DNA of 64,000 bases, from positions 248,001 through 312,000 of the forward strand of contig NZ_AFNU02000001.1 in NCBI RefSeq assembly GCF_000215935.2. The letters run 5' to 3'. The notes beneath the pieces were generated by a model, which was not told where the DNA came from, ran no database searches, and saw only the letters and a list, made by a program, of their open reading frames with translations. The DNA comes from Haloplasma contractile SSD-17B. Its GTDB lineage: Bacteria > Bacillota_I > Bacilli_A > Haloplasmatales > Haloplasmataceae. This document shows positions 4,299 to 44,950 of the stretch, piece by piece; position 1 is the stretch's first letter, and the number at the start of each line of letters is the position of its first letter. The translations under genes and the position numbers were made by a program.

Positions 4299-4620
4299 TT
4301 GTATTTATTTTGAAAATTGTGTACAATATATAAAGATAAAATAAATAATGAATGACCATGACCAGGAGGAGTAAAGATGTATTTTACTTTTTAGAGAGGA
4401 ACTTCTAGGCTGAAAGAGTTCTAAGTAAACCATTTTGAAGGTAGCCTGTGAGTTGGTATGATGAAATAAGTAGTGTAGTCATACCCGTCCGTTTACGTTA
4501 CAAACAAAATTGAGTGGCCGTAGATCATTTTTAAATCTAACGGCAATTAGGATGGTACCGCGATTATAAGTCGTTCCTGTTTTATAGTTTTAAACTATAC
4601 AACAGGGAGGGCTTTTTTTA
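4299..4620 (+). promoter_or_regulatory. T-box leader of valS with promoter and terminator
   Basis: A tRNA-sensing T-box riboswitch. A plausible promoter (TTGTAT 4299, 17 bases, TACAAT 4322) is followed by a structured leader, the diagnostic T-box sequence AGGATGGTACCGCG at 4549-4562, and a terminator hairpin (4576-4610) ending in seven T. In the expected specifier position (GAAG-GTA-GCC, codon at 4441-4443) the triplet is GTA, a valine codon, which fits valS downstream. The exact specifier is inferred from pattern only. Uncharged tRNA-Val should favour the antiterminator and allow valS transcription. Confidence 0.88.
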
Positions 4621-4819: not shown

Positions 4820-4914
4820 TAAAAAACATAACTTATGAAGAATTTGTAATGAACTTAGAAATTAGTTTGATAAACTATATAGAGTTCGTATACGTTAGAA
4901 AGGAAGTAGATCTT

Positions 4915-7560: not shown

Positions 7561-7720
7561 AACTAAGTAATATGATCTAGAGGGGGACCGTTTCTCCTAC
7601 TCAAGATCTATTACCAAATATAGATAACAAAAAAATTATTATAATAATTTATTCTTTTAAAGTAGTGTGGTATTATATAACATATGTAGTTTGATTTATT
7701 ACAGGAAGGGAGTACTGCAC

Positions 7721-8308
7721 ATGTTAAAAATGAATAAATTAATATATAGTTTAATACTCATCGGAGTCATTTTACTTTCTGGGTGCGAACAAACTCAAGA
7801 AGAACAAAATGAGCCAGAAAAGGATTTTACCTATTTAAACGAATTGACACACGAGGAATTCAAAGCTAAGTTTGATGCTGGTGAAGAGTTTTTTATCTAT
7901 ATTGGTCGCCCGGATTGTGGTGATTCGCGTAAATTTGAGCAAGAATTTGAAGATTTATTTGTTAAATTACATGAAGATGGTTCGGTAAACTTTATACGTT
8001 ATGAGCTAGATCAAAAATTATATTACTTTGATATATCGAGTATAATTCCTGATTTTGATAAGGTACTTAGAAAAGAATATCACGAGAAATATGATTTCTA
8101 CTTTACACCAACATTACTACATTATAAAAATGTTGATGAAGATCCAGAAAGTGATGCAATTATTATAGCAGAGTGGGACCCTGTTTACGGCTTCGAGCCC
8201 ACACAATATATGAACTGGTTCTACGATACTGGGTTAATTGAACCTAATCAAGATATTATTCATGATGGTGGTACTGATCGTGTATATGATGAATCAGAAG
8301 AAAAATAA
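7721..8308 (+). CDS. Thioredoxin-fold lipoprotein with CxxS motif
   Basis: A secreted lipoprotein of 195 residues. The N-terminus is MLKMNKLIYS, a hydrophobic stretch, and lipobox LLSGC, so it should be anchored outside the membrane. A thioredoxin-like domain follows, with IYIGRPDCGDSRKFEQEF giving a CGDS (CxxS) active site and a TPT loop (FTPTLLHY) in the cis-proline position. CxxS proteins lack the resolving cysteine and usually bind or isomerise rather than reduce disulfides. The start is the ATG after GGAAGGGAG. An upstream in-frame start at 7667 would bury the signal peptide. Its neighbour at 8338 is a CxxC thioredoxin, so the two may act as a pair on extracytoplasmic thiols. Substrate unknown. 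Confidence 0.8.
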   Translation: MLKMNKLIYSLILIGVILLSGCEQTQEEQNEPEKDFTYLNELTHEEFKAKFDAGEEFFIYIGRPDCGDSRKFEQEFEDLFVKLHEDGSVNFIRYELDQKLYYFDISSIIPDFDKVLRKEYHEKYDFYFTPTLLHYKNVDEDPESDAIIIAEWDPVYGFEPTQYMNWFYDTGLIEPNQDIIHDGGTDRVYDESEEK

Positions 8309-8337
8309 GATAATTAATATATGATGGAGTGATTAAT

Positions 8338-8775
8338 ATGAAAAAAATGGTAATTGGACTAATTTCATTATTAGTTGTACTAATTATAACAATCATCGGG
8401 ATTGATATTTACAATTCAGCGAAAGGGTATAAAGTAGAGCCTAAATCAGCTGAAGTTGCACTCGAGCAATTTGCTAAAGGAGAAGACTTTTTATTAGTGC
8501 TTGGGCAATCTTGGTGCGGTGGATGTAAAGCATATAAGAAGGACGCGTTGCCTGAGTATTTAAAATCAGATTATAATGAACAATATCCTTTAATATATGT
8601 CGAGTTGGATGAGAATCCGGAAAGCATTAGAAAAACACTTACAGGTATAGCTAACGTTACTTCTACACCTACTACTTACCTAGTGATAGATGGACAAATT
8701 CAACCAAAGTTAGAATCTGGAAAATATATTCCATCATTTGAACAAATAGAATCATATATTGAAAACTATGAGTAA
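8338..8775 (+). CDS. Membrane-anchored thioredoxin-like protein (CGGC)
   Basis: A 145-residue protein with an N-terminal transmembrane anchor (about residues 5-25) and an extracytoplasmic thioredoxin domain. The active site is WCGGC within LGQSWCGGCKAYKKD, and the cis-proline loop is TSTPTTYLV. CxxC thioredoxins of this kind resemble bacteriocin-transport accessory proteins and other extracytoplasmic thiol-disulfide enzymes. The specific role is unknown. I chose the ATG at 8338 (MKKMV) with GGAGTG nine bases upstream, over a GTG at 8329. It lies 29 bases after the CxxS lipoprotein and is followed by a terminator, so the two genes look like one unit. Confidence 0.82.
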   Translation: MKKMVIGLISLLVVLIITIIGIDIYNSAKGYKVEPKSAEVALEQFAKGEDFLLVLGQSWCGGCKAYKKDALPEYLKSDYNEQYPLIYVELDENPESIRKTLTGIANVTSTPTTYLVIDGQIQPKLESGKYIPSFEQIESYIENYE

Positions 8776-8972: not shown

Positions 8973-9647
8973 ATGAAAGCAACAATCTTAGTAGTAGATG
9001 ATGAAAGACATTTAAGGAACCTAATGACTGATTATTTAATAAACGAAGCATATACCGTCATTGAAGATAAAAATGGTGCTGAAGCAATTGAACAGTATAT
9101 GAACAATGCTTCAGAAATTGATTTAATTATACTAGATGTTATGATGCCAAAAGTCTCAGGTTGGGATGTTTGTAAACGAATTCGAAACCAATCAAAAGAG
9201 GTACCAATATTATTTTTAACGGCACTAGGTAGCATTGATAATGAGATTAAGGGATTAGATCTAGGAGCAGATGAATATATTGCAAAGCCTTTTGAATACA
9301 AGGTATTAATGGCGAGAGTAAGATCAATATTAAGACGATTAAATAAGGGTGAACGCTTAATTGTGGGTAATTATTTAACAGTTGATTTTTATGCAAGAAC
9401 AGTAATAGAAGATGGAAGTGAACTTACTTTAACATCAAAAGAATTTGATTTACTTGAGTATTTAATAAAGAATAAAAACATCGCTTTATCTAGGGAGCAA
9501 ATTCTAAACCAAATATGGGGATACGACTATATTGGTGATATCCGCACCGTTGATACCCATATTAAACAACTAAGAGCAAAATTAACGAAATCCTCAACAC
9601 TAATAAAAACAGTACGTGGTCACGGTTATAAGTTAGAGGTGACATAA
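8973..9647 (+). CDS. OmpR/PhoB-family response regulator
   Basis: A DNA-binding response regulator of 224 residues. The receiver domain (1-~120) has the acidic pair at D9-D10, phospho-acceptor D55 (LIILDVMMPK), the threonine in FLTALG and the lysine in YIAKPF. The C-terminal winged helix (about 130-224) includes LTSKEFDLLEYLIKN and ends DTHIKQLRAKL with KTVRGHGYKLEV, typical of the OmpR/PhoB family. GAGGAGG precedes the ATG. The TAA overlaps the ATG of the histidine kinase by one base, so the pair is cotranslated. It probably binds the 11-bp repeats before its own gene and before the secreted protein at 11166. Confidence 0.95.
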   Translation: MKATILVVDDERHLRNLMTDYLINEAYTVIEDKNGAEAIEQYMNNASEIDLIILDVMMPKVSGWDVCKRIRNQSKEVPILFLTALGSIDNEIKGLDLGADEYIAKPFEYKVLMARVRSILRRLNKGERLIVGNYLTVDFYARTVIEDGSELTLTSKEFDLLEYLIKNKNIALSREQILNQIWGYDYIGDIRTVDTHIKQLRAKLTKSSTLIKTVRGHGYKLEVT

Positions 9648-16300: not shown

Positions 16301-16686
16301 CGATAGTATTCAGGTGATCGCGCCATTTCGATGGTGAGGAAAGTCCATGCTCGCACAGACTGAGATGTCTGTAGTGTTCGTGCCTGACGAAACAATAAGT
16401 CAGGGTAGCATTTCTATGCTAACGGCTGTGTTTCTACCTAAACCTTTATGGCATGGTATAAACACTTTAAAAGTGCCACAGTGACGATGCCTAGTAGAAA
16501 TACTAGGACTGGAACGGGTAAACCCCACGAGCGAGAAACCCAAATGTTGGTAGGGGAACTTTTAACTCGGGAATTAAACTGAGTAGAAGGCAGTAATTTA
16601 CTGTAGATAAATGATTACCACCGGAGTACGAGGAGGCATCCGTTTGCAGTACTAAGGAACAGAACATGGCTTATCGAATACTATCG
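16301..16686 (+). ncRNA. rnpB: RNase P RNA, Bacillus type (class B)
   Basis: Catalytic RNA that trims the 5' leader from precursor tRNAs together with the RnpA protein. The ends pair perfectly as helix P1: CGATAGTATTC at 16301-16311 with GAATACTATCG at 16676-16686. Between them are the conserved GAGGAAAGTCCATGCTCGC segment (starting near 16336), the GAAACCC and ACCCCACGAGCGAGAAACC region, and the 3' conserved AGAACATGGCTTA. The overall length of about 386 nucleotides and the lack of type A elements fit the Bacillus form. A promoter with start point at the first base lies directly upstream and an intrinsic terminator follows. The position next to recU agrees with other Bacilli. Confidence 0.97.
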
Positions 16687-16704
16687 AATGCATATGAGTA
16701 TACA

Positions 16705-16736
16705 AACTTCTAGACAATCGTCTAGGAGTTTTTTTT
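16705..16736 (+). terminator. Terminator of rnpB
   Basis: AACTTCTAGA and TCTAGGAGTT form a stem around a short loop, followed by eight T. Confidence 0.88.
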
Positions 16737-16819: not shown

Positions 16820-16848
16820 TTGAATAATGGTGTTAACTCGTTTATAAT
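16820..16848 (+). promoter_or_regulatory. Promoter of the guanine riboswitch
   Basis: TTGAAT (16820-16825), 17 bases, TATAAT (16843-16848), which places the transcript start about 20 bases before the aptamer. A second TATAAT at 16793 and a cre-like AGTAAACGCTTTAA (about 16772-16785) lie just upstream. Confidence 0.65.
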
Positions 16849-16876
16849 TGACCTGTAAAGAAAAAACTAAATATGC

Positions 16877-17055
16877 AATCGTATAACATCGGTAATACGG
16901 ACCGAAAGTCTCTACCTACCAACCGTAAATTGGTAGACTACGATTAGTGCTGAGTTTTATAATCTAAAGTTACGTACTTTTATGCAAAAAGTATGTAAAT
17001 TTAATTGCGCTAAAATCGTAAGGCTTTCGGAGTTCATCTTCGAAGGCTTTTTTTG
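16877..17055 (+). promoter_or_regulatory. Guanine-type purine riboswitch with terminator
   Basis: The aptamer is complete. P1 pairs AATCGTA (16877-16883) with TACGATT (16939-16945). P2 is TCGGT/ACCGA with the seven-base loop AATACGG. P3 is CTACCAA/TTGGTAG with loop CCGTAAA, whose CC can pair with the GG of the P2 loop. The joining strand AAGTCTCTAC and the J3/1 stretch ACTA match the purine class. The specificity base is C16938, which predicts guanine or hypoxanthine rather than adenine. A terminator follows (GCTTTCGGAG and CTTCGAAGGC, 17023-17047, then seven T). AATCGTA at 17014-17020 can pair with the 3' strand of P1, giving the usual mutually exclusive helix. No purine gene follows. The next gene is the ABC importer at 17423. 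Confidence 0.9.
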
Positions 17056-17422
17056 TTCTAAAAAGCAAGGAGCATACTCTATTTTTACCCAAAACAGTGT
17101 TTTTTAGGCAAAAAATTTATTTTCAATTTTTGTCGATAAGAATAGTATAAAAAATCCAAATAAAACCAGAAAATGTTAATAAAAACAAGTAATTAATGAT
17201 GCTTTTACTAGATATAAATTACCTTATCGTGTATAATGAAATTATATTTTGATTACTGGGAGAGGATGATGAATATTAAAAAACTGTAAACTTTTTTTTG
17301 AAGTTATAATTGATTGTTAACGCTTTTATAAAAACTTGCTAAATAGGATCTTAACAGAATATTAATATACTATTTTTTGGTAATATAGTATAATCAAATG
17401 TGTGAAAGTGAGGAAGATAACG
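17056..17422 (+). other. Leader region before the ABC importer
   Basis: 367 bases without a substantial ORF. A seven-codon frame, MMNIKKL then TAA (17267-17290), follows GGGAGAGG and could be a leader peptide or remnant. TGTTAACGCTTTTA (17315-17328) resembles a CcpA cre site. TATAAT at 17389-17394 has no clear -35 box. The importer could therefore be transcribed by read-through from the riboswitch, from this promoter, or both. Confidence 0.5.
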
Positions 17423-18478
17423 ATGGAAATTAGATTAGAAAATTTAACGAAGGTTTTTGTCGAAAAAAAGCAAAAGGAAACGATTGCTGTTAACGATATG
17501 ACCTTAACAATCCCTTCAGGTAAGTTAATTGGTTTGTTAGGTCCATCGGGATGCGGAAAGTCAACTACATTATTTATGATTTCAGGTTTATTAAAACCAA
17601 CAAGTGGTAAAATTTTCTTTGGTAACGATGATGTTACTAAATTAGCTGCTGAAAAAAGAGGGATTGGACTTGTGTTCCAAAATTATGCATTATACCCTCA
17701 TATGACCGTTCAGCAAAATATAATGTTCCCATTAGAGAACTTAAATGTAAAACGTGATGAAGCAATAGAGCGCACTTATGACATGGCAAAACTAGTTGGG
17801 ATCGAAGAGTTATTAGATCGCAAGCCTGGTCAATTATCAGGTGGACAACAACAGCGTGTAGCCATTGCACGAGCATTAGTTAAGAAGCCTCGTGTACTAC
17901 TACTTGACGAGCCATTATCAAACCTTGATGCTCGTTTAAGACTGCAAACACGTGAAGAAATTAAACGTATCCAACGAGAAACCGGAATTACGACAATCTT
18001 TGTAACGCATGATCAAGAAGAAGCTATGAGTATTTCTGATGAAATAGTTGTAATGAATTATGGTGTTACGCAACAAATGGGGGAACCACAAAAGGTTTAT
18101 ACCAACCCAGACAACTTATTTGTAAGTAAGTTCTTAGGGAATCCTCCTATTAATATTTTAGAAGGACGTATTTCTAAAGGTAAATTATTTGCAGGTGAAA
18201 TTGAACTTGCTGATGGGTTTGACATGGAAAATCGTAATGTAACAATTGGGATTCGTCCTGAGGACTTTAAAGTGGATGCGAATGGATTTGAAGCTAAAAT
18301 CACTTATATGGAATGTATCGGACGAGACACAACAATTCGTTTCCCATTAAATGAATCATCAATGCGAGCGCTTATCGATTCCGAGAGTCTAGTTGAATCG
18401 GATAAAATCAACTTGACTGTAAGAAAAGAGAAGGTGCATTTATTTGATCCTGAAACTGGGGCTGTTCTAAATGGATAA
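17423..18478 (+). CDS. ABC importer ATPase (MalK/MsmX/UgpC type)
   Basis: ATP-hydrolysing subunit of a binding-protein-dependent importer, 351 residues. It shows Walker A GPSGCGKSTT, Q-loop FQNYALYPHM, signature LSGGQQQRVAIARAL, Walker B VLLLDEPLSNLDARL and the H-loop VTHDQEEAM. After about residue 235 comes the regulatory OB-type domain (TIGIRPEDF, then DTTIRF) of CUT1-family ATPases. I prefer the ATG at 17423 (MEIRLENLTK) over a GTG at 17402 because GTGAGGA sits before it. It overlaps the first permease gene by eight bases. The family usually serves di- and oligosaccharides and glycerol-3-phosphate. The neighbouring nucleases raise another possibility. Confidence 0.93.
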   Translation: MEIRLENLTKVFVEKKQKETIAVNDMTLTIPSGKLIGLLGPSGCGKSTTLFMISGLLKPTSGKIFFGNDDVTKLAAEKRGIGLVFQNYALYPHMTVQQNIMFPLENLNVKRDEAIERTYDMAKLVGIEELLDRKPGQLSGGQQQRVAIARALVKKPRVLLLDEPLSNLDARLRLQTREEIKRIQRETGITTIFVTHDQEEAMSISDEIVVMNYGVTQQMGEPQKVYTNPDNLFVSKFLGNPPINILEGRISKGKLFAGEIELADGFDMENRNVTIGIRPEDFKVDANGFEAKITYMECIGRDTTIRFPLNESSMRALIDSESLVESDKINLTVRKEKVHLFDPETGAVLNG

Positions 18479-19520
18479 AATACGTAATTTTATATGGACG
18501 GTTAGAAATAGATATTATAAAGTTAACTCATCTATTCGTGATAACTTTAAAGAAGTTTATAATCGATTTGTAGAGACAAAAGCAGGTGCTTTTTTACATA
18601 AATATTTATTGCGCCATTTGGAAAATAGTCAATTTGTAAAAGGGGCTCTGTATCTGTCACCTGTATTAGTTTTATTGGGCATTTTTACATTTTATCCAAT
18701 TATTAATACAATGATGATTGCATTTTATAAAAACTATTCACCAGCAGATGGAATGATGGATGGATACACACTTGAAAACTTTACAACTGTATTGAAGCGT
18801 CCTGGGTTTAAACAAGCCCTTCAAAATACGGCAATCATCGTTTTGGTGTCAGTTCCTATATCAGTAATTATTTCATTGTTTATTGCTGTAATGCTAAACT
18901 CTATTAAGAAAATGCGAGCATTCTTTCAAACTGTTTTCTTCTTACCATATGTAACGAATGTAATTGCAATTGGACTTGTATTCTCATTGATGTTTAATAG
19001 TCAATACGGTTTAATTAATAAGTTATTAGAAATGGTAGGACTTTCGCCTGTTCACTGGCAAGATGCGAATGCTACTTATTGGAGTGCAATGGCGACTTTA
19101 CTGATTTATACAGTATGGAAATCATTAGCATTTAAAATTATGGTATTTACTGCTGGTCTATCTAATATTGATAAGCAGTTTTATGATGCTGCTAAAGTAG
19201 ATGGAACACCGAAATGGAGAGTGTTTACTCGTATTACTGTTCCACTTTTATCACCAATGATCGCCTATGTAACAATTACATCATTTATAGGAGCATTTAA
19301 AGCTTATACAACTGTTGTATCACTATTTGGTGAGACCGGTGTTACTGCGGGTGGAAAAGACATGAGAACAATTGTGTTCTATGTCTATGAATATATTGGT
19401 GAAGCCTTACAACCAGGTGAGTTATCTAAGGGGGCAGCAGCCTCACTGATTCTATTTGGAATTATTCTGTTGTTTACAGTATTCCAATTATACATTAGTA
19501 AAAAACGTGTGCATTACTAA
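18471..19520 (+). CDS. ABC importer permease, MalF/UgpA type
   Basis: First transmembrane subunit of the importer, 349 residues. After an unusually long charged N-terminal segment (about 55 residues) come six predicted membrane spans, beginning GALYLSPVLVLLGIFTFYPI. The binding-protein-dependent permease loop (EAA motif) is visible as YDAAKVDGTPKWRVFTRITVP, the site that contacts the ATPase. It starts inside the ATPase gene with no good ribosome site of its own, so its translation probably depends on the upstream reading frame. The second permease begins 18 bases after its stop. Confidence 0.92.
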   Translation: MDKIRNFIWTVRNRYYKVNSSIRDNFKEVYNRFVETKAGAFLHKYLLRHLENSQFVKGALYLSPVLVLLGIFTFYPIINTMMIAFYKNYSPADGMMDGYTLENFTTVLKRPGFKQALQNTAIIVLVSVPISVIISLFIAVMLNSIKKMRAFFQTVFFLPYVTNVIAIGLVFSLMFNSQYGLINKLLEMVGLSPVHWQDANATYWSAMATLLIYTVWKSLAFKIMVFTAGLSNIDKQFYDAAKVDGTPKWRVFTRITVPLLSPMIAYVTITSFIGAFKAYTTVVSLFGETGVTAGGKDMRTIVFYVYEYIGEALQPGELSKGAAASLILFGIILLFTVFQLYISKKRVHY

Positions 19521-19538
19521 GGGGAGGTGCTGACTAAA

Positions 19539-20831
19539 ATGAAGAATAAATTAATTTTAAGAAACTCATTTATAGCAATGTATTTTGAACTGGTTTGGGT
19601 TATTGTAAGCATTTCAATCTTTGCTAATCTCTACATGTTATTAATTGTTCCAGAAGAGGGACAGATAATAGATGTATCTAAAACTTATACTTTATTAGGA
19701 TATGAGAATATTCCTGAAGCAACATTAAATCTAATCATGGGATTATGTGTCTTTGTATTAATTATTGCTGTTCCTTTATTAGTGCTTAATTATAAAAATT
19801 ATAAACTAATGAAAGCAAATTCATTTGACCGTGAGACAGGAATCTTTCAAGTATTCGCAGGGGTATTGTATCTCCTGACTCTAAATATACCGTCGACGAT
19901 TCTATATATTTTCTCTGGTAGAGAGATTTTAAAACAGAATCCCAAAATACATATTGAGTACGAAGATCCAGAGTATGAGCAAAGTAGAGCAAACTTCAAC
20001 TATATAATTAGTAGAGTGCTGTTGTTTATGGCATTAATTTTCTTAGCACTAATTATTATTATTCCATTTTATTACATGATTTTAACGTCTTTAATGTCAC
20101 AGGCCACATTAGAGAGTTTTGATACAAATTTATTTTTGAACCTTAAAGACATGGAATGGATTAACTTTAAAGAAGCGCTCACAAAAGCAGACTTTGGAAT
20201 GTACATTAAAAATACATTAATCGTTGCTTTCTTTACAACAGCAGGTACTGTCATTACAACTATTATGGCTGCATTTGCCTTTGCTAGACTCGAGTTCAAA
20301 GGTAGGGATTTATTATTCTCGCTATTCTTAATGACAATGATGGTTCCTGGAGAACTGTATGTAATTACAAATTTTGTTACCGTAACGAATACATTTAATT
20401 GGTATAATACGTTCTATGCGATGGTTGTTCCCTTTATTGCAAGTATTTTCTATATATTCTTTTTAAGACAAACATTTAAACAAATACCCGATAGCTTATA
20501 TAGAGCAGCTAAAGTAGATGGGTGTAGTGATTTTAAATTCTTAACTAGAGTTATGGTGCCAGTAGCAATTCCGACTTTAATCACAATCACAATACTTAGT
20601 GCATTAGGAACATGGAATGCATATGTATGGCCAAGACTTGTTGCTAGTGATGATCATTATCTAGTATCGATTGCCTTACGTACAGCATTTGTTAATGAGG
20701 ATACAGGTATGCCAGACTATCGTTTGCAAATGGCTGCCGCAACAATCGTTACAGTACCAATTTTAGTTTTATTCTTATTTGCGCGTAAATATATTATGCG
20801 TGGAGTTGGAAGAAGTGGAACGAAGGGATAG
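19539..20831 (+). CDS. ABC importer permease, MalG type, with N-terminal extension
   Basis: Second transmembrane subunit, 430 residues, against about 270-300 for normal MalG-type permeases. The C-terminal ~275 residues hold the standard six spans and the EAA loop (YRAAKVDGCSDFKFLTRVMVP). The first ~150 residues are additional: about three hydrophobic segments (near 12-35, 62-85 and 95-120) and a charged linker (YEDPEYEQSRANFN). I do not recognise that extension. The start is the ATG at 19539 with GGGGAGGTG nine bases before it. A GTG at 19527 overlaps that ribosome site and is unlikely. Confidence 0.88.
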   Translation: MKNKLILRNSFIAMYFELVWVIVSISIFANLYMLLIVPEEGQIIDVSKTYTLLGYENIPEATLNLIMGLCVFVLIIAVPLLVLNYKNYKLMKANSFDRETGIFQVFAGVLYLLTLNIPSTILYIFSGREILKQNPKIHIEYEDPEYEQSRANFNYIISRVLLFMALIFLALIIIIPFYYMILTSLMSQATLESFDTNLFLNLKDMEWINFKEALTKADFGMYIKNTLIVAFFTTAGTVITTIMAAFAFARLEFKGRDLLFSLFLMTMMVPGELYVITNFVTVTNTFNWYNTFYAMVVPFIASIFYIFFLRQTFKQIPDSLYRAAKVDGCSDFKFLTRVMVPVAIPTLITITILSALGTWNAYVWPRLVASDDHYLVSIALRTAFVNEDTGMPDYRLQMAAATIVTVPILVLFLFARKYIMRGVGRSGTKG

Positions 20832-20958: not shown

Positions 20959-22776
20959 ATGAAGAAATTTGCAATACTATTTGCTGTTCTTGTAATGACT
21001 TTCGCTTTAGTTGGTTGCGCGAAAAAGCGTAATCAAGCACCTGAAATTCAGGGGGCCGTTACTACACAAACAATAGAGATTGGGTCAGAATATGATCCTC
21101 TTGATGGAGTTGTAGTTACAGATGACAATGATGGGACAATTACTAGTGATATTGAAGTAATAGGATCTTATGATGTTGATTCTGTAGGAGAATACACATT
21201 CTCGTTAAAGGTTAAGGACTCTGAGGGTTTAACTGATGAAGTGACAATTAAACTAATTGTAGAAGATCCTAACTCAGACAATCAAAGACCGACTTTAGTT
21301 GGCGTATCTGCAAACCAAACGTACTATATTGGTTCAGGAGCATACAATCCAATTGCAAATGTATCTGCTGTTGATGCTGAAGATGGAGCGATTACAGATA
21401 TCACGGTTGAGTATCCTGATAACTACGACTTAACAACGGCTGGTACTTATGTATTAATTATTAAGGTTGTAGATAGTCAAAATGCTTTAGCCCAACAAAC
21501 GGTTCAATTAACTGTTAAAGAACCAACTGTTCCTAACGCATTAACAAGTGATGATATTGAGATTACATTCTGGCATGCATTTGGACAAGAAAAAGAAGGA
21601 TTTGTTAGAGAATATGCTGATGAGTTTGAAGCCCTATATCCGAATGTAACAATTACTCTACAAAGTCAAGGTGGGTATACTGAACTATTAGATAAAGTTA
21701 CTTCTTCAATAGTTGCTGATAATATTCCAACTATGTTAATCGGATACCCAGATCATGTAGTAAACTATTTATCTGCTGATGCAGTTGAGCCATTAGATCA
21801 ATATGCATCTCATCCTGAACATGGTATTGAATTAAATGATTTTGTACAGTCTTATATAGATGAAAACACATCATTTAATAGTGAAGGGACATTATATGGC
21901 TTACCTTTCAATAAATCAACAGAAGTATTAATCTATAACAAAGACTTCTTTGATAATAACTCACTAACTGTTCCTACTTCTTGGGTAGAAGTAGCTGCTA
22001 TATCTGAAGAAGTTCGAAATGACTATACTGCTGATGACGTATATGGATTTGCTTATGACTCAGCGGCCAATATGTTTATCACATTAACTAGACAATGGGG
22101 CGGAGAGTATACAGGAATTGATGCAAATGCTAATGGAGAATATTTATTTGATAATGCTCAAACACGTAGCATGTTAACGTACTTCAAAGGTTTAGAGCAA
22201 CAAAACTATGTAACATTGCCACAGGCTTGGGAACAAGACTATGCAAGTGATCCATTTAAAAATGAAAAAGTGTTTATGACTGTAGGCTCAACTGCAGGTA
22301 TTACTTACAATATTCCTGCTGAAGGTACTTTTGAAATCGGTGTTGCACCAATCCCTCAGTATGATGAGAACAATAAACATGTAATTCAGCAAGGGACAAA
22401 CATTTCAATTCTTAAGTCAGACTCTATATCAGATCAAGAAAAACTTGCTGCATGGTTATTTGCTAAATATTTAACTAGTCCTGACGTTACAACTGATTGG
22501 GCTATAAAGACTGGTTATCTTCCGGTTAGAGAGAGTGCCTATACGTCAGATGAATATGCTCAATTTTTAGATTACTCTGATGCAACAGGAAATGAAAAAT
22601 ACATTTCAATGGCAGCCAATGCGGCTTATGAACAAAAAGATTTCATGTTTGTCGATCAGCCTTTCTCGGGATCATCAAAAGCACGTGCACAAGTTGATTC
22701 GTTAACAACTCAAGTTATTGTTGGTGATGTTTCGATTGACCAAGCAATTGCTAATGCTTTAGCTGAGTTAGAGTAG
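20959..22776 (+). CDS. Solute-binding lipoprotein with two Ig-like domains
   Basis: Extracellular binding component of the importer, 605 residues. Signal peptide and lipobox (LVGCA, Cys20) anchor it to the membrane. Two ~80-residue beta-sandwich units follow (about 30-105 and 112-190). They have the DUF5011/HYR-like pattern 'IEIGSEYDPLDGV.V.D..DG.I', then 'VD...VGEYTFSLKVKDSEG'. From about residue 200 to the end it is a family 1 solute-binding protein of the CUT1 type (DIEITFWHAFGQEKEG, then LYGLPFNKSTEVLIYNKDFF). The Ig-like spacers are unusual for this class and probably lift the binding domain away from the membrane. AAAGGAGAG precedes the ATG. The ligand cannot be read from sequence. Confidence 0.9.
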   Translation: MKKFAILFAVLVMTFALVGCAKKRNQAPEIQGAVTTQTIEIGSEYDPLDGVVVTDDNDGTITSDIEVIGSYDVDSVGEYTFSLKVKDSEGLTDEVTIKLIVEDPNSDNQRPTLVGVSANQTYYIGSGAYNPIANVSAVDAEDGAITDITVEYPDNYDLTTAGTYVLIIKVVDSQNALAQQTVQLTVKEPTVPNALTSDDIEITFWHAFGQEKEGFVREYADEFEALYPNVTITLQSQGGYTELLDKVTSSIVADNIPTMLIGYPDHVVNYLSADAVEPLDQYASHPEHGIELNDFVQSYIDENTSFNSEGTLYGLPFNKSTEVLIYNKDFFDNNSLTVPTSWVEVAAISEEVRNDYTADDVYGFAYDSAANMFITLTRQWGGEYTGIDANANGEYLFDNAQTRSMLTYFKGLEQQNYVTLPQAWEQDYASDPFKNEKVFMTVGSTAGITYNIPAEGTFEIGVAPIPQYDENNKHVIQQGTNISILKSDSISDQEKLAAWLFAKYLTSPDVTTDWAIKTGYLPVRESAYTSDEYAQFLDYSDATGNEKYISMAANAAYEQKDFMFVDQPFSGSSKARAQVDSLTTQVIVGDVSIDQAIANALAELE

Positions 22777-22789
22777 TGACTGATCTAAG

Positions 22790-23875
22790 ATGAGTTTTAA
22801 AAACCTATTTCTATTAGTTTTATTAGTTGGATTATTAACAGCGTGCTCAAATACTAATGACAAACAAAATAGATATACATTACCTGATTTATCGGGTAAA
22901 ACGATTGACAACTATAAAGAAGCAATTGATTCTCCTAAAATAACATTTGTGGAAAAAAAGGAATATAATGATGTTCTTGCTGTAGATGAATTTATTCGAT
23001 ATGATGAAAATTTGTCAGCAGGTGATCAAGTTGACTTTGGAGATATGGTCTATATCTACTTTTCTAAGGGACCAGCGGCACCAGCCGATACAGAAAGTCC
23101 TCAAATTCATGGTATATCAGATGGAGAAATCAAACATAGTGCAGAATTTGATCCTTTAGAAGGAGTAACGGTAACTGATGATATTGATACAGATTTAATC
23201 GATCGATTAGTTGTTACTGGTCAAGTAAACACTTCTAAATTTAATGATTACACATTAACCTACACTGTGATGGACCGTTCCGGGAAAATGACTCAAGAAA
23301 CACGAATAATCACAATTATTCCTGGAGACATAGACACACGTTATACGGATCAATTAACACTGGATCAAGATTTCTATAATAAAACATTTCTAAACGATGG
23401 TATTGGAATTGTTACTCTTGCACAAGGTGGATGTGTGGATGGAGATACAGCAGAATTTATTGATAGTGATGGTTCGCCACTTACAGGAGATAACCGAGTA
23501 CGTTTTATAGGTATTGATACACCAGAGACGAGTCCTTATGTTGGTGTACAGCCATGGGGACATGCAGCTAAAGATTTTACTTGCGAGAAATTAAAGAATG
23601 CTGAACAGATTGTCCTTGAGAGTGAAGGTACACTTAAAGGGAATTACGGTCGTTACATGGCTTGGATTTGGGTCGATGGAAGACTTCTGAATCTTGAAAT
23701 TCTTGAAGAGGCTCTAGCTGAAGGAAAAGCTGCAGGAACAAAATATAGTGAGATTTTCAATCTGGCAGAAATAAAGACCAAAGGCACAAAGGAACGCATC
23801 TTTGGGAACTATGACTCCAATGGGGCCTATGACCCTGATTATGATTATGAGAATAATGTCCACATCGGAGACTAG
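22790..23875 (+). CDS. SNase-family nuclease lipoprotein with PASTA-like and Ig-like domains
   Basis: Predicted secreted, membrane-anchored thermonuclease, 361 residues. Lipobox LLTAC gives Cys19. One PASTA-like unit (about 28-96, YTLPDLSGKTIDNY to VYIYFSKG) and one DUF5011-like unit (about 103-178) precede the nuclease domain (about 200-345). That domain keeps the staphylococcal-nuclease residues: calcium-site aspartates in CVDGDTAEF (D217, D219), R238 and E246 in VRFIGIDTPE, and R288 in YGRYMAW. R238 and E246 are spaced exactly like R35 and E43 of the model enzyme. Substrates should be extracellular DNA and RNA. It begins 13 bases after the binding-protein stop with a weak ribosome site, so it is probably in the same operon. 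Confidence 0.9.
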   Translation: MSFKNLFLLVLLVGLLTACSNTNDKQNRYTLPDLSGKTIDNYKEAIDSPKITFVEKKEYNDVLAVDEFIRYDENLSAGDQVDFGDMVYIYFSKGPAAPADTESPQIHGISDGEIKHSAEFDPLEGVTVTDDIDTDLIDRLVVTGQVNTSKFNDYTLTYTVMDRSGKMTQETRIITIIPGDIDTRYTDQLTLDQDFYNKTFLNDGIGIVTLAQGGCVDGDTAEFIDSDGSPLTGDNRVRFIGIDTPETSPYVGVQPWGHAAKDFTCEKLKNAEQIVLESEGTLKGNYGRYMAWIWVDGRLLNLEILEEALAEGKAAGTKYSEIFNLAEIKTKGTKERIFGNYDSNGAYDPDYDYENNVHIGD

Positions 23876-23943: not shown

Positions 23944-24042
23944 TAACATTATTTTAAATTTTCTCATTCTTGATATAAATATAAATAAACATTAATTAAA
24001 TTATTGATAAATAAAAGATCAAAGAAAAGGAGAAACGATGAT

Positions 24043-26979
24043 ATGAAGAAATTTATTGCTTTATTTCTTACCTTATCCTTCATGTTAGTGTTAGCAGCTT
24101 GTGGACCTAACACTGGCGAATTACTAAATGAAGCCAAAGAAGATTTAAATGTCGTTTATTCAAATGGAGATAGTGCGGATTCAGTTACTAAAAGAGTGAC
24201 GCTTATAACTAGTGGAATAAACAGTGCTATTATAACTTGGGAATCAAGTAACACTGATGTAATAGCAAATGATGGTACTGTTACACGTCCTGACTTTGGT
24301 GATGGAGATGCAGAAGTAACATTAACAGCTACTATAATGAAAGAAGATGAATCAGTGACAAAAGCGTTTGATTTAATTGTGAAAGAAATCGAACAAACTG
24401 ATCAGGAAAAAGTAGATGCTGCAAAGACTAATTTAGAAATCACTTTTGCTACTGGTGATGATGCAAGTTCAGTAACTAGTGATATAACGCTACCTACAGA
24501 AGATGGAGATGTTACAATCTCTTGGATTTCAGCAAAAACAGATATAATTACTAATGCTGGTGTTGTTACTAGACCTGCTTATACTGAAGATGATGAAATG
24601 GTCGTATTAACAGCAACATTAACTGCAGGTAATGAACTTGCGACTAAGTCATTCACGCTTACTGTCCCTGCCCATCCTATGACGGACGCAGATGCAGCTG
24701 AAGAAACAAAATCTAAAATTATAATCTTAAGTAATGCCACTGAAGCAACATCAAGCTTTGCTCTACCTACAGTGGGTGCTAACGATACAGTAATTTCATG
24801 GACATCTTCTAATGCTGATGTAATTGAAATTACATCAGAAACAATGGGAGCTGGAATAAAAGCGAAATTAACCCGTCCTGCTTTTGGTGAAGATGACGCT
24901 ACTATAACATTAACAGCAACAATTACTAAGAATGATGCTTCTGTAACTAGAACATGGGATATCGATGTTCCTGCATTAGAAACTGCTCCTACTACGATTG
25001 CAGACTTTAAGATGACTGCTAGCGCTGGAGATGAATTTACTTTTACGGCGACTGTAATTGGATTGCATGTGGTTGATAAATATAAAGGTTTCTATGTTTA
25101 TGACGGTACAGAATCAACTTATATACATAACGGGACAAGTGTTCCTGACGTATCAATTGGTGATGAGGTTACAATAACTGGAGAATTTGATGTATATCAT
25201 GGTATGCCACAACTTGCTTACCCGAATATAGAAGTGTTAAGTAGCGGAAACACTACACCGGATCCATATGTAAAAGCATTCTCTGAATTTGATACAACAG
25301 CAAGTACAAGAACAGAATATCATAGTGATTATATCACGTTAGAAAATGTATTCATTACTGATGAGGGTGAAAGTTATTACTTTATAACACAAGAGGGTAT
25401 CAAGTATGAATTATTTGACCAAACAGCTGGTAATGAAGATATAATTAATAATTATGTTGGAAAATCAGTTAACATAAATGTAATTGTACATTCATATCAT
25501 TCTCTTCATAAAGCTTGGCAATTCTCATTTGTTAATCAGCCTGGAGATATTGAGGAAGTGGTTTTAACAGATGCTGAAAAGCTAGCAAATGCTAAATCCA
25601 TATTATCGTTACCAACAGAGATCACTGAATTAGTACAGAGTTTGACATTACCTACGTCTTCAAACGATGTAACTATATCTTGGGTTTCAACTGATTCTAA
25701 CGTTATTGCTTTAGATGGGACAATTTCTCAACCAGCAATTGGAGAATCAGAAGTTGTTGTTACACTTACTGCAACATTAACTGTTGGAAGCGAAACTGAT
25801 ACTAAGGTTTTTGAAATAACTGTAAAACCACAAGTTGCTGTCACTACAGTAACCGATGCGCTTACTCAAGTTGATGGTGATGTAGTGAAAATCAAGGCAA
25901 TTGTTTCAGGACTACACTCAGATTCAGGATACTTTATTCAAGATGTAGATGGAACAGCAATATATGTAGACGAAGACCATTACGTAGAAGTTGGCGATGA
26001 AATTATCGTTATTGGAAAATTAGATACATATGACAGTTACGGTAATAATCAAAGAAAATTAGTTAGTGGTGCTGTATTAGACAGTGTTGTCTCTAAATTT
26101 AATACAACTACAGTAAAAACTGATTTAACAGCACAACAAATTGTTGACAATCATTCCCTATACTCATCGCAATTAATTACTTTAACTAATGTTACAATTA
26201 AACAAGTAGATGATGGTTATGGCTATACATTTGTTGAAACTAATGGTTCTATGGAGTTTAAGTTTAAAGCATCAGATTTTGGTATTGATACAACTACTTG
26301 GGTAGATGGAGGTACATTATCAGTTATCTCATTTAATGTTTATGATGTACACTATAGTGATTTACGTTTAGACAATGTTACACTAGCAGAAGTAGCTCAA
26401 CCCCCAGTAACCACAAGTACAGTGACACAAACTTTACAAGAGAGTGATAACACTGTAGTTAGAATAACAGGTGTCGTTACTGGTTTAAATTTTGATTCAG
26501 GTTACTTTGTACAAGATACTGATGGAACAGCAATTTATGTAAGAGCAGGACATAATGTAACTGTTGGTGATCAAGTAGATGTTACGGGTAGATTAGAAAC
26601 GTTTACTAAGTATGGAAACGATCAAAAGCGTTTAGCAAGTGGAGCGGTATTAAATAATGTTGTATCGTCAAACAATGCTTTGACTGTAAAAACAGACCTA
26701 ACAGCGCAACAAATTGTTGATAATCACTCACAATATTCTTCGCAACTAATTACATTAACTGATGTTATAATTGATCAAGTAGATGATGGATACGGATATA
26801 CGTTCATAAAAACTAACGGTTCAATGTTAATTAAATTCAAAGCTGCTGATTACAGTATTGATACATCATCTTGGACGGATGGAGATACAATTCCAGTTAT
26901 TTCATTCAATGTTTATGATGTAAACTATAGTAACTTAAGAGTTGTTAATGTTACATTAGCAGATGTAATACAACCATAA
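24043..26979 (+). CDS. Large surface lipoprotein with Ig-like and OB-fold-like repeats
   Basis: A 978-residue lipoprotein of unknown function (signal peptide, lipobox LAACG, Cys20). Residues of about 25-320 hold three ~95-residue units with the 'ISW.SS...VI...G.VTRP..GE.D..VTLTAT' pattern of degenerate bacterial Ig domains. About 325-500 is an OB-fold-like unit (FTATVIGLHVVDKYKGFYVY...). A fourth Ig-like unit follows (about 510-605). The rest is two ~185-residue copies of an OB-fold-like module (GYFIQDVDGTAIYV / GYFVQDTDGTAIYV, each followed by KTDLTAQQIVDNHS). Such OB modules occur in secreted nucleases such as YhcR. No catalytic domain is seen here. The start follows AAGGAG. Likely binds a ligand, possibly nucleic acid, beside the two nucleases. 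Confidence 0.85.
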   Translation: MKKFIALFLTLSFMLVLAACGPNTGELLNEAKEDLNVVYSNGDSADSVTKRVTLITSGINSAIITWESSNTDVIANDGTVTRPDFGDGDAEVTLTATIMKEDESVTKAFDLIVKEIEQTDQEKVDAAKTNLEITFATGDDASSVTSDITLPTEDGDVTISWISAKTDIITNAGVVTRPAYTEDDEMVVLTATLTAGNELATKSFTLTVPAHPMTDADAAEETKSKIIILSNATEATSSFALPTVGANDTVISWTSSNADVIEITSETMGAGIKAKLTRPAFGEDDATITLTATITKNDASVTRTWDIDVPALETAPTTIADFKMTASAGDEFTFTATVIGLHVVDKYKGFYVYDGTESTYIHNGTSVPDVSIGDEVTITGEFDVYHGMPQLAYPNIEVLSSGNTTPDPYVKAFSEFDTTASTRTEYHSDYITLENVFITDEGESYYFITQEGIKYELFDQTAGNEDIINNYVGKSVNINVIVHSYHSLHKAWQFSFVNQPGDIEEVVLTDAEKLANAKSILSLPTEITELVQSLTLPTSSNDVTISWVSTDSNVIALDGTISQPAIGESEVVVTLTATLTVGSETDTKVFEITVKPQVAVTTVTDALTQVDGDVVKIKAIVSGLHSDSGYFIQDVDGTAIYVDEDHYVEVGDEIIVIGKLDTYDSYGNNQRKLVSGAVLDSVVSKFNTTTVKTDLTAQQIVDNHSLYSSQLITLTNVTIKQVDDGYGYTFVETNGSMEFKFKASDFGIDTTTWVDGGTLSVISFNVYDVHYSDLRLDNVTLAEVAQPPVTTSTVTQTLQESDNTVVRITGVVTGLNFDSGYFVQDTDGTAIYVRAGHNVTVGDQVDVTGRLETFTKYGNDQKRLASGAVLNNVVSSNNALTVKTDLTAQQIVDNHSQYSSQLITLTDVIIDQVDDGYGYTFIKTNGSMLIKFKAADYSIDTSSWTDGDTIPVISFNVYDVNYSNLRVVNVTLADVIQP

Positions 26980-27004: not shown

Positions 27005-27029
27005 GAAGCCTCTTCGGAGGCTTCTTTTT
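27005..27029 (+). terminator. Terminator after the OB-fold lipoprotein
   Basis: GAAGCCTC-TTCG-GAGGCTTC, an eight-bp stem closed by a UUCG-type tetraloop, then five T. Confidence 0.92.
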
Positions 27030-27342
27030 ATTGCGTAAATAACTTAGCATAGCTCTTAATTATTTCCATTTTTTTGTTTTATATTGTAACTTTTTGTAGT
27101 AAAATTGTTGTATAGTCAAATAGTGTAGTTATACAGACAGTGTTAAATGTAATGATTAGAAAAAACATCGTAGAATATAAGTGTTTTATAATTTATAATT
27201 AAGTTGATGACTTTTTCTGATGCGTAAGTTGAGGCTAATTCTTAACTAACCATTAAATAAAGTCAATAATTCCATTAAGTTATAATCTAGATGGACATTT
27301 GCCTTTTTGGATTTGATGAATACCTGTGAAAGGAGACAAACT
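27030..27342 (+). other. Upstream region of the second nuclease gene
   Basis: About 310 AT-rich bases with no ORF I believe. TATAAT at 27281-27286 is the best -10 candidate, but it has no convincing -35. Since a terminator precedes it, the second nuclease must have its own promoter here. Confidence 0.45.
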
Positions 27343-28695
27343 ATGAAACGGTTATTTAGTTTATCATTTTTAATGCTCTTTATCGTTACGCTAGTAGGAT
27401 GTAGTGATACTACCCAAAATAGTAATAAATTCACTTTACCTGATTTAACCAATCAAACACAAGGTGAGGTAGATACTACATTACAAGGAGCTCCGATTAC
27501 GATAATTTATAAAGAGGTTAGAGATGAAACAAAGAATGATGGAACCTTTATTGAATATGGTGATGACTTAAAACCTAACGATATCATTGAGTATGGTAGT
27601 GTCATTTATGTTTATTTTGCTAAAGAAGAAATGACAACTTCAGATTCTACTGTAGAACTGCCTAGTCTAGACGGTAAGTCACTAAATGAAATCGTGACTA
27701 TTATGAATAAATATAATTTTATAATTCAATTTAATTATATTGAGAGTGACACTGTAGACGATCACATGTTTATTAGTTATGGAGAACAATTAGTTGCAGG
27801 TTCTAAAATGCACAAAAATGCTACTTTAACCATTAATTTAAGTAAATACCTACCTTCTAACGAAGTAAACTTACCTAATTTAACTGGAAAAGAGAAAATG
27901 GATATAGAACTTCTGTTTCATCCATTAGATTTAAATGTAGTATTTACTGATGTTGAGGACAACAGGTATGATACGGGTAAGTTCATTCGTTACGCATCTT
28001 ATCATGTAGGTGATGCTGTAGAAAAGGGAACAACTATTGAAGTTGTGATTGCTAATAATGGATCAGATTACTTCGCTCCTATAGAAATTGAATACGATGG
28101 ACCAAGGCTAGACTCAATTTATTTGAATGTTGATCCTATTAATCCAAGAGGTGGTTTCTTTGAAGCACCGCTAACACAATGCGTTGATGGTGATACAGCA
28201 AAGTTTGATTATCCTGACTACATTGATGTTGAATTAAACTACCCTGGTCAGAGTGTCAGATTCTTAAATATGGATACACAGGAAACGTATACAGGTGGAG
28301 AAGAAGAGTGGGGTAAACCGGGAAGTAATTATACATGTGATCAATTACAGTCAGCTGAAAGTATCATAATACAAACCGATCCTGATGACAACTTAACTGG
28401 GAATCATGGTCGACTTCTTAGTTGGATATGGATTGTTCCTGAGGGGACAGAGCTGAAGTCAGGAGAGGCTGACCATACAATTGATCAGTATGAACTGCTT
28501 AACTATAAAATTATGCAGCAGGGACTTGCAGAGGTTAAGTATTTGTTCGGTGCAGGACAAATCACTAATGACGGTAAAACCTATACTGAATGGATGTATC
28601 AGGCAGAGAATTATGCAAAGGAAAATGATTTAGGTCAATGGAGTGATTTACTAGATCCTTATTGGGACTACAATAAGGATGAACCTTTATTCTAG
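27343..28695 (+). CDS. SNase-family nuclease lipoprotein with three PASTA-like domains
   Basis: Second predicted secreted nuclease, 450 residues. A signal peptide and lipobox (LVGCS) are followed by three PASTA-like units (about 25-95, 102-170 and 172-240). All share the core '(F/V).LP.L.....', 'FI.Y...L..GD.(I/V).....' and a closing beta strand. The SNase domain (about 270-435) keeps CVDGDTAKF, VRFLNMDTQET (Arg and catalytic Glu, with Gln in place of the usual Pro) and HGRLLSWIW (second catalytic Arg). It carries insertions relative to the paralogue at 22790, notably around ETYTGGEEEWG and PEGTELKSGEAD. AAAGGAG precedes the chosen ATG. An upstream start at 27307 would mask the signal peptide. 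Probably transcribed on its own. Confidence 0.88.
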   Translation: MKRLFSLSFLMLFIVTLVGCSDTTQNSNKFTLPDLTNQTQGEVDTTLQGAPITIIYKEVRDETKNDGTFIEYGDDLKPNDIIEYGSVIYVYFAKEEMTTSDSTVELPSLDGKSLNEIVTIMNKYNFIIQFNYIESDTVDDHMFISYGEQLVAGSKMHKNATLTINLSKYLPSNEVNLPNLTGKEKMDIELLFHPLDLNVVFTDVEDNRYDTGKFIRYASYHVGDAVEKGTTIEVVIANNGSDYFAPIEIEYDGPRLDSIYLNVDPINPRGGFFEAPLTQCVDGDTAKFDYPDYIDVELNYPGQSVRFLNMDTQETYTGGEEEWGKPGSNYTCDQLQSAESIIIQTDPDDNLTGNHGRLLSWIWIVPEGTELKSGEADHTIDQYELLNYKIMQQGLAEVKYLFGAGQITNDGKTYTEWMYQAENYAKENDLGQWSDLLDPYWDYNKDEPLF

Positions 28696-28809
28696 TGATT
28701 GAAGCAAATACGAACCGATCAATTAAGATAAATTTTGTGATCATATTATTTAATTTTAATCTAGTGGTAGGATAATATAGAAATAAGTTCATTAAAAAAG
28801 GTGATTCAC

Positions 28810-29409
28810 ATGAGACTAAAACGTGACTTCTATGAACGTAATACGTTAACCGTTGCAAAAGAACTACTAGGAAAGACACTGGTTGTCCTTGTTGATAACG
28901 TTCCTGTAAAAAGCAAAATAGTTGAGACAGAAGCTTATATAGGTCCCCATGACAAGGCAGCACATACCTATAACAACAGGCGAACAATGAGAACTGAAAC
29001 GATGGTTTTGACAGGTGGACATGCCTATGTGTATCAAATATATGGCATGTATTTCTGTTTAAATGTAACGACTAGTTTAAAAGAAAAACCTGAAGCTGTA
29101 CTAATACGAGCTGTTGAGCCAATAGAACATATAGAAATACTTAAAAAGCATAGAAAGATTAAGATCAAAAGAGAGCGTGATTTGACAAACGGTCCTGGGA
29201 AGTTATGCCAAGCTTTGAAAATTGACAAGCGGATAGATGGTGTTGATTTTGTGACAAACGATGGTTATTATATTGAGGATGAAAAATCTAGTCTTGAAGC
29301 GATTGAAATAATTTCGGCAAAACGAATCGGAATAGACTATGCAGAGGAATATAAAGATAAAGCATGGCGATTTTATATTAAAGATAATGTCTATGTTTCA
29401 AAAAAATAG
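28810..29409 (+). CDS. 3-methyladenine DNA glycosylase (Mpg/AAG family)
   Basis: Removes alkylated purines such as 3-methyladenine and hypoxanthine from DNA to begin base-excision repair in the cytoplasm. The 199-residue protein matches the AAG/MPG family: catalytic glutamate in VETEAYIGPHDKAAHTYNN, then TGGHAYVYQIYGMYFCLNV, then AVLIRAVEP and LTNGPGKLCQAL. The start is the ATG at 28810 with AAAGGTGAT upstream rather than a GTG at 28801. Although it follows the nuclease genes, a 114-base gap and a cytoplasmic role suggest an independent unit. The PASTA-nuclease gene upstream lacks an obvious terminator. Confidence 0.92.
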   Translation: MRLKRDFYERNTLTVAKELLGKTLVVLVDNVPVKSKIVETEAYIGPHDKAAHTYNNRRTMRTETMVLTGGHAYVYQIYGMYFCLNVTTSLKEKPEAVLIRAVEPIEHIEILKKHRKIKIKRERDLTNGPGKLCQALKIDKRIDGVDFVTNDGYYIEDEKSSLEAIEIISAKRIGIDYAEEYKDKAWRFYIKDNVYVSKK

Positions 29410-29518: not shown

Positions 29519-30121
29519 ATGAATTTACCGAACAAACTTACATTATCTAGAATCTTTCTAATCCCAGTCTTTGTCGTTATTCCATACATAGATGCTTTTA
29601 TGAAAGACGTGTCACTATTCAATCATAGTGTGATGCTTGGGAATTTAATTATTGTAATTATTTTTGCGATTGCATCAATTACTGATTTTGTTGATGGATA
29701 TGTTGCAAGAAAATATAACTTAGTTACTACTTTTGGAAAATTCATGGATCCTTTAGCTGATAAATTGCTTGTGACGGCAGCACTACTTATGTTAGTCGAA
29801 TTAGGGTTGTTACCTGCATGGGTTCCAATTGCAATTTTATCAAGAGAATTTATGGTGACAGGAATACGATTGCTAGCGATTTCCGAAGGAAAAGTGATTG
29901 CTGCATCTAAACTAGGAAAATTAAAGACTGTATCTCAAATGATCATGATTTTAGTTCTATTTATTGTAGATACACCGTATAAAGATTTAATTAATAAACC
30001 ATTAAGTCCGGCAATAAATAGTGTCAATATCATCCTGATTTTACTTGCAACTTCACTAACAGTTATTTCTGGAGTTGACTATTTTGTGAAAAACAAGGAT
30101 ATAATTTTGGAAAGCAAATAA
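29519..30121 (+). CDS. pgsA: CDP-diacylglycerol-glycerol-3-phosphate phosphatidyltransferase
   Basis: Membrane enzyme that makes phosphatidylglycerophosphate, the committed step to phosphatidylglycerol and cardiolipin. The 200-residue product has four or more membrane spans. It carries the complete CDP-alcohol phosphotransferase signature, D-x2-DG-x2-AR-x8-G-x3-D-x3-D, within DFVDGYVARKYN and FGKFMDPLADK. The N-terminus MNLPNKLTLSRIFLIPVF is typical. It is followed by recA, as in Bacillus, but the cinA gene commonly found between them is absent. Its stop codon lies only three bases before a LexA-type box. Confidence 0.95.
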   Translation: MNLPNKLTLSRIFLIPVFVVIPYIDAFMKDVSLFNHSVMLGNLIIVIIFAIASITDFVDGYVARKYNLVTTFGKFMDPLADKLLVTAALLMLVELGLLPAWVPIAILSREFMVTGIRLLAISEGKVIAASKLGKLKTVSQMIMILVLFIVDTPYKDLINKPLSPAINSVNIILILLATSLTVISGVDYFVKNKDIILESK

Positions 30122-44647: not shown

Positions 44648-44950
44648 TTGACAGGTTTAAAATTTATGATATAATTATTTTGAATTTGGTAAACATAATA
44701 TTAAATGGCAATGACTGGGACTGTAGACCTATAGACACTTATTAAAGCGATTCGAGGATGGTGTAAGCTCGGAATAAGAATAGGTTTAGGATCACCCACG
44801 AGCTTCATGCTGAACACAATTAGTTACTAAGCATGACGTTATTAATGCGTTAAATGATTATGAGATATGTATTTTTTTTAATGCATGTAAAAAAAGGTGG
44901 TACCACGGTTCTCATCGTCCTTTATATTAATATAAAGGGCTTTTTTTATT
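44648..44950 (+). promoter_or_regulatory. T-box leader of ileS with promoter and terminator
   Basis: A strong promoter (TTGACA 44648, 16 bases, TATAAT 44670) is followed by a structured leader. The diagnostic T-box AGGTGGTACCACG lies at 44895-44907, and a terminator hairpin follows (CCTTTATATTAATATAAAGG, then a T-run to 44948). ATC at 44791-44793 is an isoleucine codon on the 3' side of the first stem, where the specifier should be. That assignment is tentative. The ileS start is 43 bases past the terminator. Confidence 0.9.

What the first reader, a model, noticed from the sequence alone, without database searches (positions are those of the whole stretch)
16820..17422. Complete guanine riboswitch with no purine gene behind it, upstream of an importer-nuclease locus
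All elements of a guanine-class aptamer are present (P1-P3, 7-base loops that can kiss, C at the specificity position), with promoter, terminator and a P1-competing strand. Such switches normally precede purine synthesis or transport genes. Here the next gene, 367 bases past the terminator, is a CUT1-type ABC ATPase, followed by secreted nucleases. If transcripts read through, guanine would control uptake or degradation of extracellular nucleic acid. Otherwise the switch is orphaned, perhaps after loss of a purine gene. A seven-codon frame at 17267 may mark that loss.
Basis: partly seen in the sequence, partly recalled or inferred. Interest (0 to 1): 0.75.

Follow-up and report, generated by a model that had tools for sequence, protein, structure and literature searches.

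The report
Guanine riboswitch fronting DNA-scavenging operon
A genuine, intact guanine-sensing RNA switch sits in front of genes predicted to cut up and import external DNA or RNA, in a bacterium that has lost the ability to make purines, so it probably turns on nucleic-acid scavenging when guanine runs short.

Summary
The riboswitch is real: Rfam Purine RF00167 at 16859-16960, 85.5 bits, E 5e-14, the best of six in this Haloplasmataceae genome. It has C at the guanine-reading position, an intrinsic terminator, and a computed antiterminator shared with the genome's NCS2-permease riboswitch. No purine gene lies behind it, and no purine-gene remnant was found in the gap. The next genes are a CUT1-type ABC importer, two SNase-type nucleases and a large Ig-like surface protein, a cluster conserved in over 30 related genomes and known as a nucleic-acid scavenging locus. 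Among 53 sources searched with a riboswitch model, the window is the only one with the switch upstream of that cluster. In relatives the cluster often follows ackA; here it sits between rnpB and aag-pgsA-recA, with the switch at its 5' edge. The genome lacks purE and purC. Best reading: an OFF switch adding guanine control to this operon. A conserved -10 element just before the first gene leaves an orphan switch possible. The aptamer is ordinary; its target is new.

The parts
16306..16678 (+). rnpB (RNase P RNA, class B), 5' boundary of the inserted block; own terminator 16704-16731
   Evidence: Rfam RF00011, 304.9 bits; terminator
16820..16848 (+). putative sigma-70 promoter of the riboswitch (TTGAAT-17-TATAAT)
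   Evidence: 10/12 consensus match; not above chance on its own, supported by position
16859..16960 (+). guanine-I riboswitch aptamer (P1 16877-16882/16940-16945, P3 16916-16922/16930-16936, specificity C16938)
   Evidence: Rfam RF00167 85.5 bits; session covariance model 89.5 bits; alignment of 35 relatives
16902..16911 (+). antiterminator 5' strand (P2 3' strand + J2/3), pairs with 17021-17030
   Evidence: 10 bp CCGAAAGUCU/AGGCUUUCGG; same pairing, -16.9 kcal/mol, in the genome's NCS2 riboswitch
16938..16950 (+). P1 3' strand that pairs with about 17007-17018 in the ligand-free fold
   Evidence: minimum-energy folds
17020..17056 (+). intrinsic terminator (13 bp stem) with T-run
   Evidence: 5' arm in the 15-nt GTAAGGCTTTCGGAG shared with the genome's NCS2 leader
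17266..17289 (+). seven-codon frame ATGATGAATATTAAAAAACTGTAA (MMNIKKL) with Shine-Dalgarno-like GGGAGAGG; meaning unknown
   Evidence: sequence; no similarity of the gap to purine genes
17389..17394 (+). putative proximal -10 (TATAAT), aligned with conserved TATAATTAA-type elements before the same gene in four relatives
   Evidence: alignment
17423..18478 (+). CUT1-type ABC ATPase (UgpC/MalK-like)
   Evidence: Pfam ABC_tran and OB_MalK; best NCBIfam match UgpC, below its cut-off
18471..19520 (+). ABC permease 1 (UgpA-like)
   Evidence: BPD_transp_1; overlaps the ATPase gene
19527..20831 (+). ABC permease 2 (UgpE-like, extended N-terminus)
   Evidence: BPD_transp_1
20959..22776 (+). solute-binding lipoprotein with Ig-like domains
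   Evidence: SBP_bac_8, Bact_surface_Ig-like
22790..23875 (+). predicted surface SNase-type nuclease A
   Evidence: SNase PF00565 E 1.5e-12
24004..26979 (+). large aBig_2 surface lipoprotein
   Evidence: aBig_2 E 1.9e-90; terminator 27005-27024 follows
27307..28695 (+). predicted surface SNase-type nuclease B with PASTA domains, probably its own transcript
   Evidence: PASTA and SNase
28801..29409 (+). aag (3-methyladenine glycosylase family), 3' boundary of the inserted block; pgsA 29519-30121 and recA 30253-31305 follow
   Evidence: ORFs against relatives, in most of which aag directly follows rnpB; gene names by eye from sequence

Best explanation
It is an intact guanine-I riboswitch (transcriptional OFF switch) of the kind that fronts NCS2 purine permeases. 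In this lineage it lies in front of a conserved ABC importer/secreted nuclease operon, which was relocated to the rnpB-aag junction. Without guanine, the P2 3' strand/J2-3 and the P1 3' strand pair with the terminator's 5' arm and the segment before it, the terminator fails, and transcription runs through a 367-nt gap into the operon. With guanine bound, P1 and P2 hold, the terminator forms, and the distal transcript stops near 17056. A proximal promoter probably gives a second, guanine-independent supply. The predicted result is that this purine auxotroph raises extracellular nucleic-acid digestion and uptake when guanine is scarce. Shown: the aptamer, the terminator, the computed alternative folds, the gene content, the different genomic position of the operon, and the absence of purE and purC. 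Inferred: guanine binding, direction of switching, read-through, and the imported substrate.
For: Aptamer 85.5 bits, highest of six in the genome. Antiterminator -46.4 against -32.9 kcal/mol for the aptamer-forced fold once the terminator 5' arm is transcribed; full-length aptamer plus terminator -48.1. The aptamer core is 93% identical over 71 nt to the genome's NCS2-permease aptamer while the flanks are largely diverged, and a 13-bp terminator stem is kept in both, which suggests continued selection. The other five switches precede xpt-guaA, a BmpA-type nucleoside ABC, an NCS2 permease, guaB and a PhnD-type ABC; of 23 other family riboswitches 22 precede purine genes or such transporters, one is at a contig end. 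No terminator or ORF of 100 aa or more lies between switch and operon. purE and purC are absent from a 98.8% complete genome. The operon sits between rnpB and aag here, whereas in relatives rnpB is followed directly by aag or, in one, pgsA, and the operon often follows ackA. A long gap has a precedent: guaB lies about 740 nt past its aptamer behind a decayed guaA copy.
Against: No other operon locus examined carries the switch upstream, so there is no phylogenetic recurrence and no other member of the genus is held. A conserved TATAAT just before the ATPase suggests the operon has its own promoter. The gap is not specially structured (z +1.3). No RNA data exist here. Relatives that also lack purE and purC (G002, G005) have the operon without a detected switch upstream; for G002 the contig starts only 48 nt before the ATPase gene.
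Confidence: 0.58

Rival explanations
1. Orphan switch. An NCS2-type leader was duplicated or carried here during the rearrangement and has no real target; the importer operon is driven only by its proximal promoter near 17389.
For: Conserved -10-like element directly upstream of the ATPase; no switch upstream of the operon in relatives; 367-nt gap; homology to the NCS2 leader ends at the terminator.
Against: Aptamer and terminator stem remain intact although the flanks are diverged; no remnant of a purine gene in the gap; the switch lies inside the relocated block rather than in the ancestral rnpB-aag spacer.
Confidence: 0.27
2. The switch and terminator release a short RNA of about 200 nt that acts in trans (as proposed for some terminated riboswitch RNAs), and the operon behind it is coincidental.
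For: A complete promoter-switch-terminator unit that could act alone; no close target gene.
Against: No trans target is known and none was searched for; all five other switches in the genome are followed by cis targets.
Confidence: 0.06
3. The aptamer senses another purine (xanthine or 2'-deoxyguanosine), and the operon responds to that ligand.
For: Guanine-class variants with changed ligands exist, and 2'-dG-II switches precede ComEC and endonuclease I genes (PMC9295807; PMC8872408).
Against: By eye the pocket carries canonical guanine-I residues: U51-, U47- and C74-equivalents kept and no J2-3 insertion (sequence); Rfam's best match is the ordinary purine family.
Confidence: 0.05

Closest known systems
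Guanine-I riboswitch (Rfam RF00167), NCS2-permease subtype of the same genome (L037/L003)
   Same: 93% identical aptamer over 71 nt, identical P3 hairpin, the same terminator 5' arm (15-nt GTAAGGCTTTCGGAG) and the same antiterminator pairing
   Different: Precedes an ABC importer-nuclease operon instead of a nucleobase permease, across a 367-nt gap
2'-dG-II riboswitches of Bacteroidetes
   Same: Purine-family aptamers placed before genes acting on DNA (ComEC, endonuclease I; PMC8872408)
   Different: Different ligand class and phylum; no ABC importer cluster mentioned
SNase-ABC transporter operon of mycoplasmas (MAG_5040 and relatives)
   Same: SNase nuclease with CUT1-like ABC importer and solute-binding lipoprotein, co-transcribed and proposed to feed nucleotide precursors (PMC3585158)
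   Different: No riboswitch mentioned in the passages read; gene order differs
DNA-degradation loci of Candidatus Izemoplasma
   Same: Clustered extracellular nucleases and ABC transporters, with growth on DNA shown for one isolate (PMC8289736, PMC8397711)
   Different: Larger loci; the word riboswitch does not occur in those two papers

Membership tests
Guanine riboswitch (RF00167, guanine-I) | Covariance score above the family cut-off | tested here: met
   85.5 against 37 bits
Guanine riboswitch (RF00167, guanine-I) | Three-way junction with P2/P3 loops able to kiss | tested here: met
   Rfam alignment with the full P1-P3 structure; L2 AAUACGG and L3 CCGUAAA keep the GG/CC contact
Guanine riboswitch (RF00167, guanine-I) | C at position 74 and canonical pocket residues | tested here: met
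   C16938 in GACTACG; no J2-3 insertion
Guanine riboswitch (RF00167, guanine-I) | Binds guanine | not testable with these tools
   needs in-line probing or calorimetry
Guanine riboswitch (RF00167, guanine-I) | Controls a purine synthesis, salvage or transport gene (a usual association, not a structural requirement) | tested here: inconclusive
   no known purine gene downstream; the next operon is an ABC importer with nucleases, purine-related only by inference
SNase-ABC nucleic-acid scavenging operon | CUT1-like ATPase, two permeases, solute-binding protein and SNase in one run | tested here: met
   same cluster in over 30 genomes of the class
SNase-ABC nucleic-acid scavenging operon | Transport of nucleic-acid breakdown products | not testable with these tools
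   inferred from co-occurrence and the literature (PMC3585158)

The most novel reading that the evidence does not exclude
A guanine-I riboswitch controls foraging on extracellular nucleic acid: after losing de novo purine synthesis this lineage moved its nuclease-importer operon and placed it under a purine-permease riboswitch, tying polymer scavenging to the intracellular guanine level.
Probability: 0.55. Interest if true: 0.58.

Novelty: new member of a known kind. Interest (0 to 1): 0.42.

Why it matters
If true, it is a guanine-I riboswitch regulating nuclease and nucleic-acid import genes, which would tie the still uncertain substrate of the conserved SNase-ABC operon to purine supply. 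It also shows regulatory rewiring: an operon that changed place and leader in a lineage lacking purE and purC. The same operon family includes the mycoplasma nuclease-transporter clusters, whose substrate is still a proposal.

Tried and rejected
Relic of a lost purine gene: the gap gave no match to NCS2, UraA-like, xpt, bmpA, phnD, guaB or purE proteins and only chance-level guaA fragments, and outside the aptamer no other place in the genome matched. Ancestral switch at rnpB: in six of seven family members examined rnpB is followed directly by aag (intact or shortened), in G006 by pgsA-recA, with no switch there. Recurrence in other lineages: an RNA model over 53 sources (944 kb) found four hits besides the window. 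L116 and L117 precede a xanthine/uracil-type permease plus xpt with an unrelated ABC behind, L109 precedes an NCS2-like permease downstream of the operon, and L120 is a mycoplasma purine phosphoribosyltransferase/permease switch. Class-wide check of 79 more riboswitches: none had a nuclease of this kind among its first genes; about 47 matched purine-gene references directly and most others were recognised by eye as purL, formate-THF ligase-purE, adenine deaminase or PotBC-A-like ABC genes. A catabolite-control (cre) site in the gap at 17315-17328: not above chance.

Full report
What is there. cmscan of the whole window finds a purine riboswitch at 16859-16960, 85.5 bits against a curated cut-off of 37. 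rnpB ends at 16678 with its own terminator (16704-16731), so the switch is a separate unit. Position 74 is C (C16938), the pocket looks canonical, and the leader folds well beyond shuffles (z -4.8).

Genome context. The genome holds six purine riboswitches. The other five precede xpt-guaA, a BmpA-type nucleoside ABC transporter, an NCS2 permease, a PhnD-type ABC transporter, and guaB. In the family, 22 of 23 other switches precede purine genes or such transporters; the last runs into a contig end. In a class-wide set of 79 more, none had one of these nucleases among its first genes. The window switch is therefore an exception in its target, not in its structure. purE and purC are absent from this 98.8% complete genome, while G001, G003 and G004 have both, so the organism is predicted to be a purine auxotroph.

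The operon. From 17423 come a CUT1-type ATPase, two permeases, a solute-binding lipoprotein, an SNase-type nuclease and an aBig_2 surface protein, closed by a terminator at 27005-27024, then a second SNase protein. The cluster is conserved in over 30 genomes of the class. Mycoplasma counterparts are co-transcribed and proposed to supply nucleotide precursors (PMC3585158); Izemoplasma carry loci with nucleases and ABC transporters, and one isolate grows on DNA (PMC8397711; PMC8289736). A covariance model built from 35 riboswitches and run over 53 sources finds the switch upstream of this operon only in the window.

How it got there. In most family members rnpB is followed within about 100 bp by aag, then pgsA. 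In the window aag is at 28801, pgsA at 29519 and recA at 30253. So about 12 kb, with the switch at its 5' edge, lies between rnpB and aag. In several relatives the operon follows ackA; the window genome's own ackA neighbourhoods lack it. The aptamer is 93% identical over 71 nt to the genome's NCS2-permease aptamer, with the same P3 and the same 15-nt stretch at the terminator. The simplest history is relocation of the operon together with acquisition of an NCS2-type leader; the order of these events is not known.

How it works. When the terminator 5' arm has been transcribed, a composite antiterminator (16902-16911 with 17021-17030, and the P1 3' strand with about 17007-17018) reaches -46.4 kcal/mol against -32.9 for the aptamer-forced fold; at full length, aptamer plus terminator is -48.1 and the antiterminator -47.0, while the unconstrained minimum (-52.5) contains the terminator without the intact aptamer. 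This is the usual picture of a kinetically controlled OFF switch. The NCS2 leader can form the same 5'-arm pairing (-16.9 kcal/mol). These are calculations, without tertiary contacts or ligand.

The weak step. Read-through to the operon is not shown. The gap holds no terminator, but a TATAAT at 17389-17394 aligns with conserved -10-like elements in four relatives, so the operon probably has its own promoter as well. In relatives the place upstream is often taken by a promoter-like site, a short ORF and, in several, a terminator; the window may have exchanged one leader for another, which is speculation. A long gap alone is no objection, since guaB lies about 740 nt past its aptamer behind a decayed guaA.

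Verdict. A real, ordinary guanine-I riboswitch with an unusual and biologically sensible target. I give 0.58 to guanine control of the operon, 0.27 to an orphan, and the rest to a trans-acting RNA, a different ligand or something else.

Noticed in passing
L039, between the riboswitch (9161-9262, - strand) and guaB (6950-8422, -): A decayed guaA copy (50% identity over 153 aa, E 5e-42, plus two further pieces) lies between a guanine riboswitch and guaB; an intact guaA sits elsewhere behind xpt (L036).
   Followed up: partly
upstream of the ABC ATPase in L181, L084, L088, L091, L092, L086, L087: A promoter-like site, a Shine-Dalgarno and a short ORF (22-35 codons, no conserved peptide) precede the nuclease-importer operon, in several followed by a terminator: a possible attenuator or leader-peptide unit.
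   Followed up: partly
L212, L216, L220, L223: Guanine riboswitches directly upstream of PotB/PotC-like permeases with a PotA-like ATPase in four genomes of one genus: an ABC importer apparently under guanine control.
   Followed up: no
L226, L228, L234 (G028, G050, G039): Guanine riboswitches, in two genomes as two aptamers a few hundred bases apart, upstream of an unidentified protein of about 250 aa rather than an obvious purine gene.
   Followed up: no
window 4349-4581 and 44702-44925: Two T-box leaders; the first precedes a valyl-tRNA synthetase-like gene (4849-7560).
   Followed up: no
L042 1172-1488 (G006): Two purine aptamers in tandem (starts 215 bp apart) before purE, the first with its own terminator-like sequence.
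   Followed up: no
L038 8861-8962 (-): Purine riboswitch before a PhnD-type substrate-binding/ABC operon, suggesting this transporter carries a purine-related compound rather than phosphonate.
   Followed up: no
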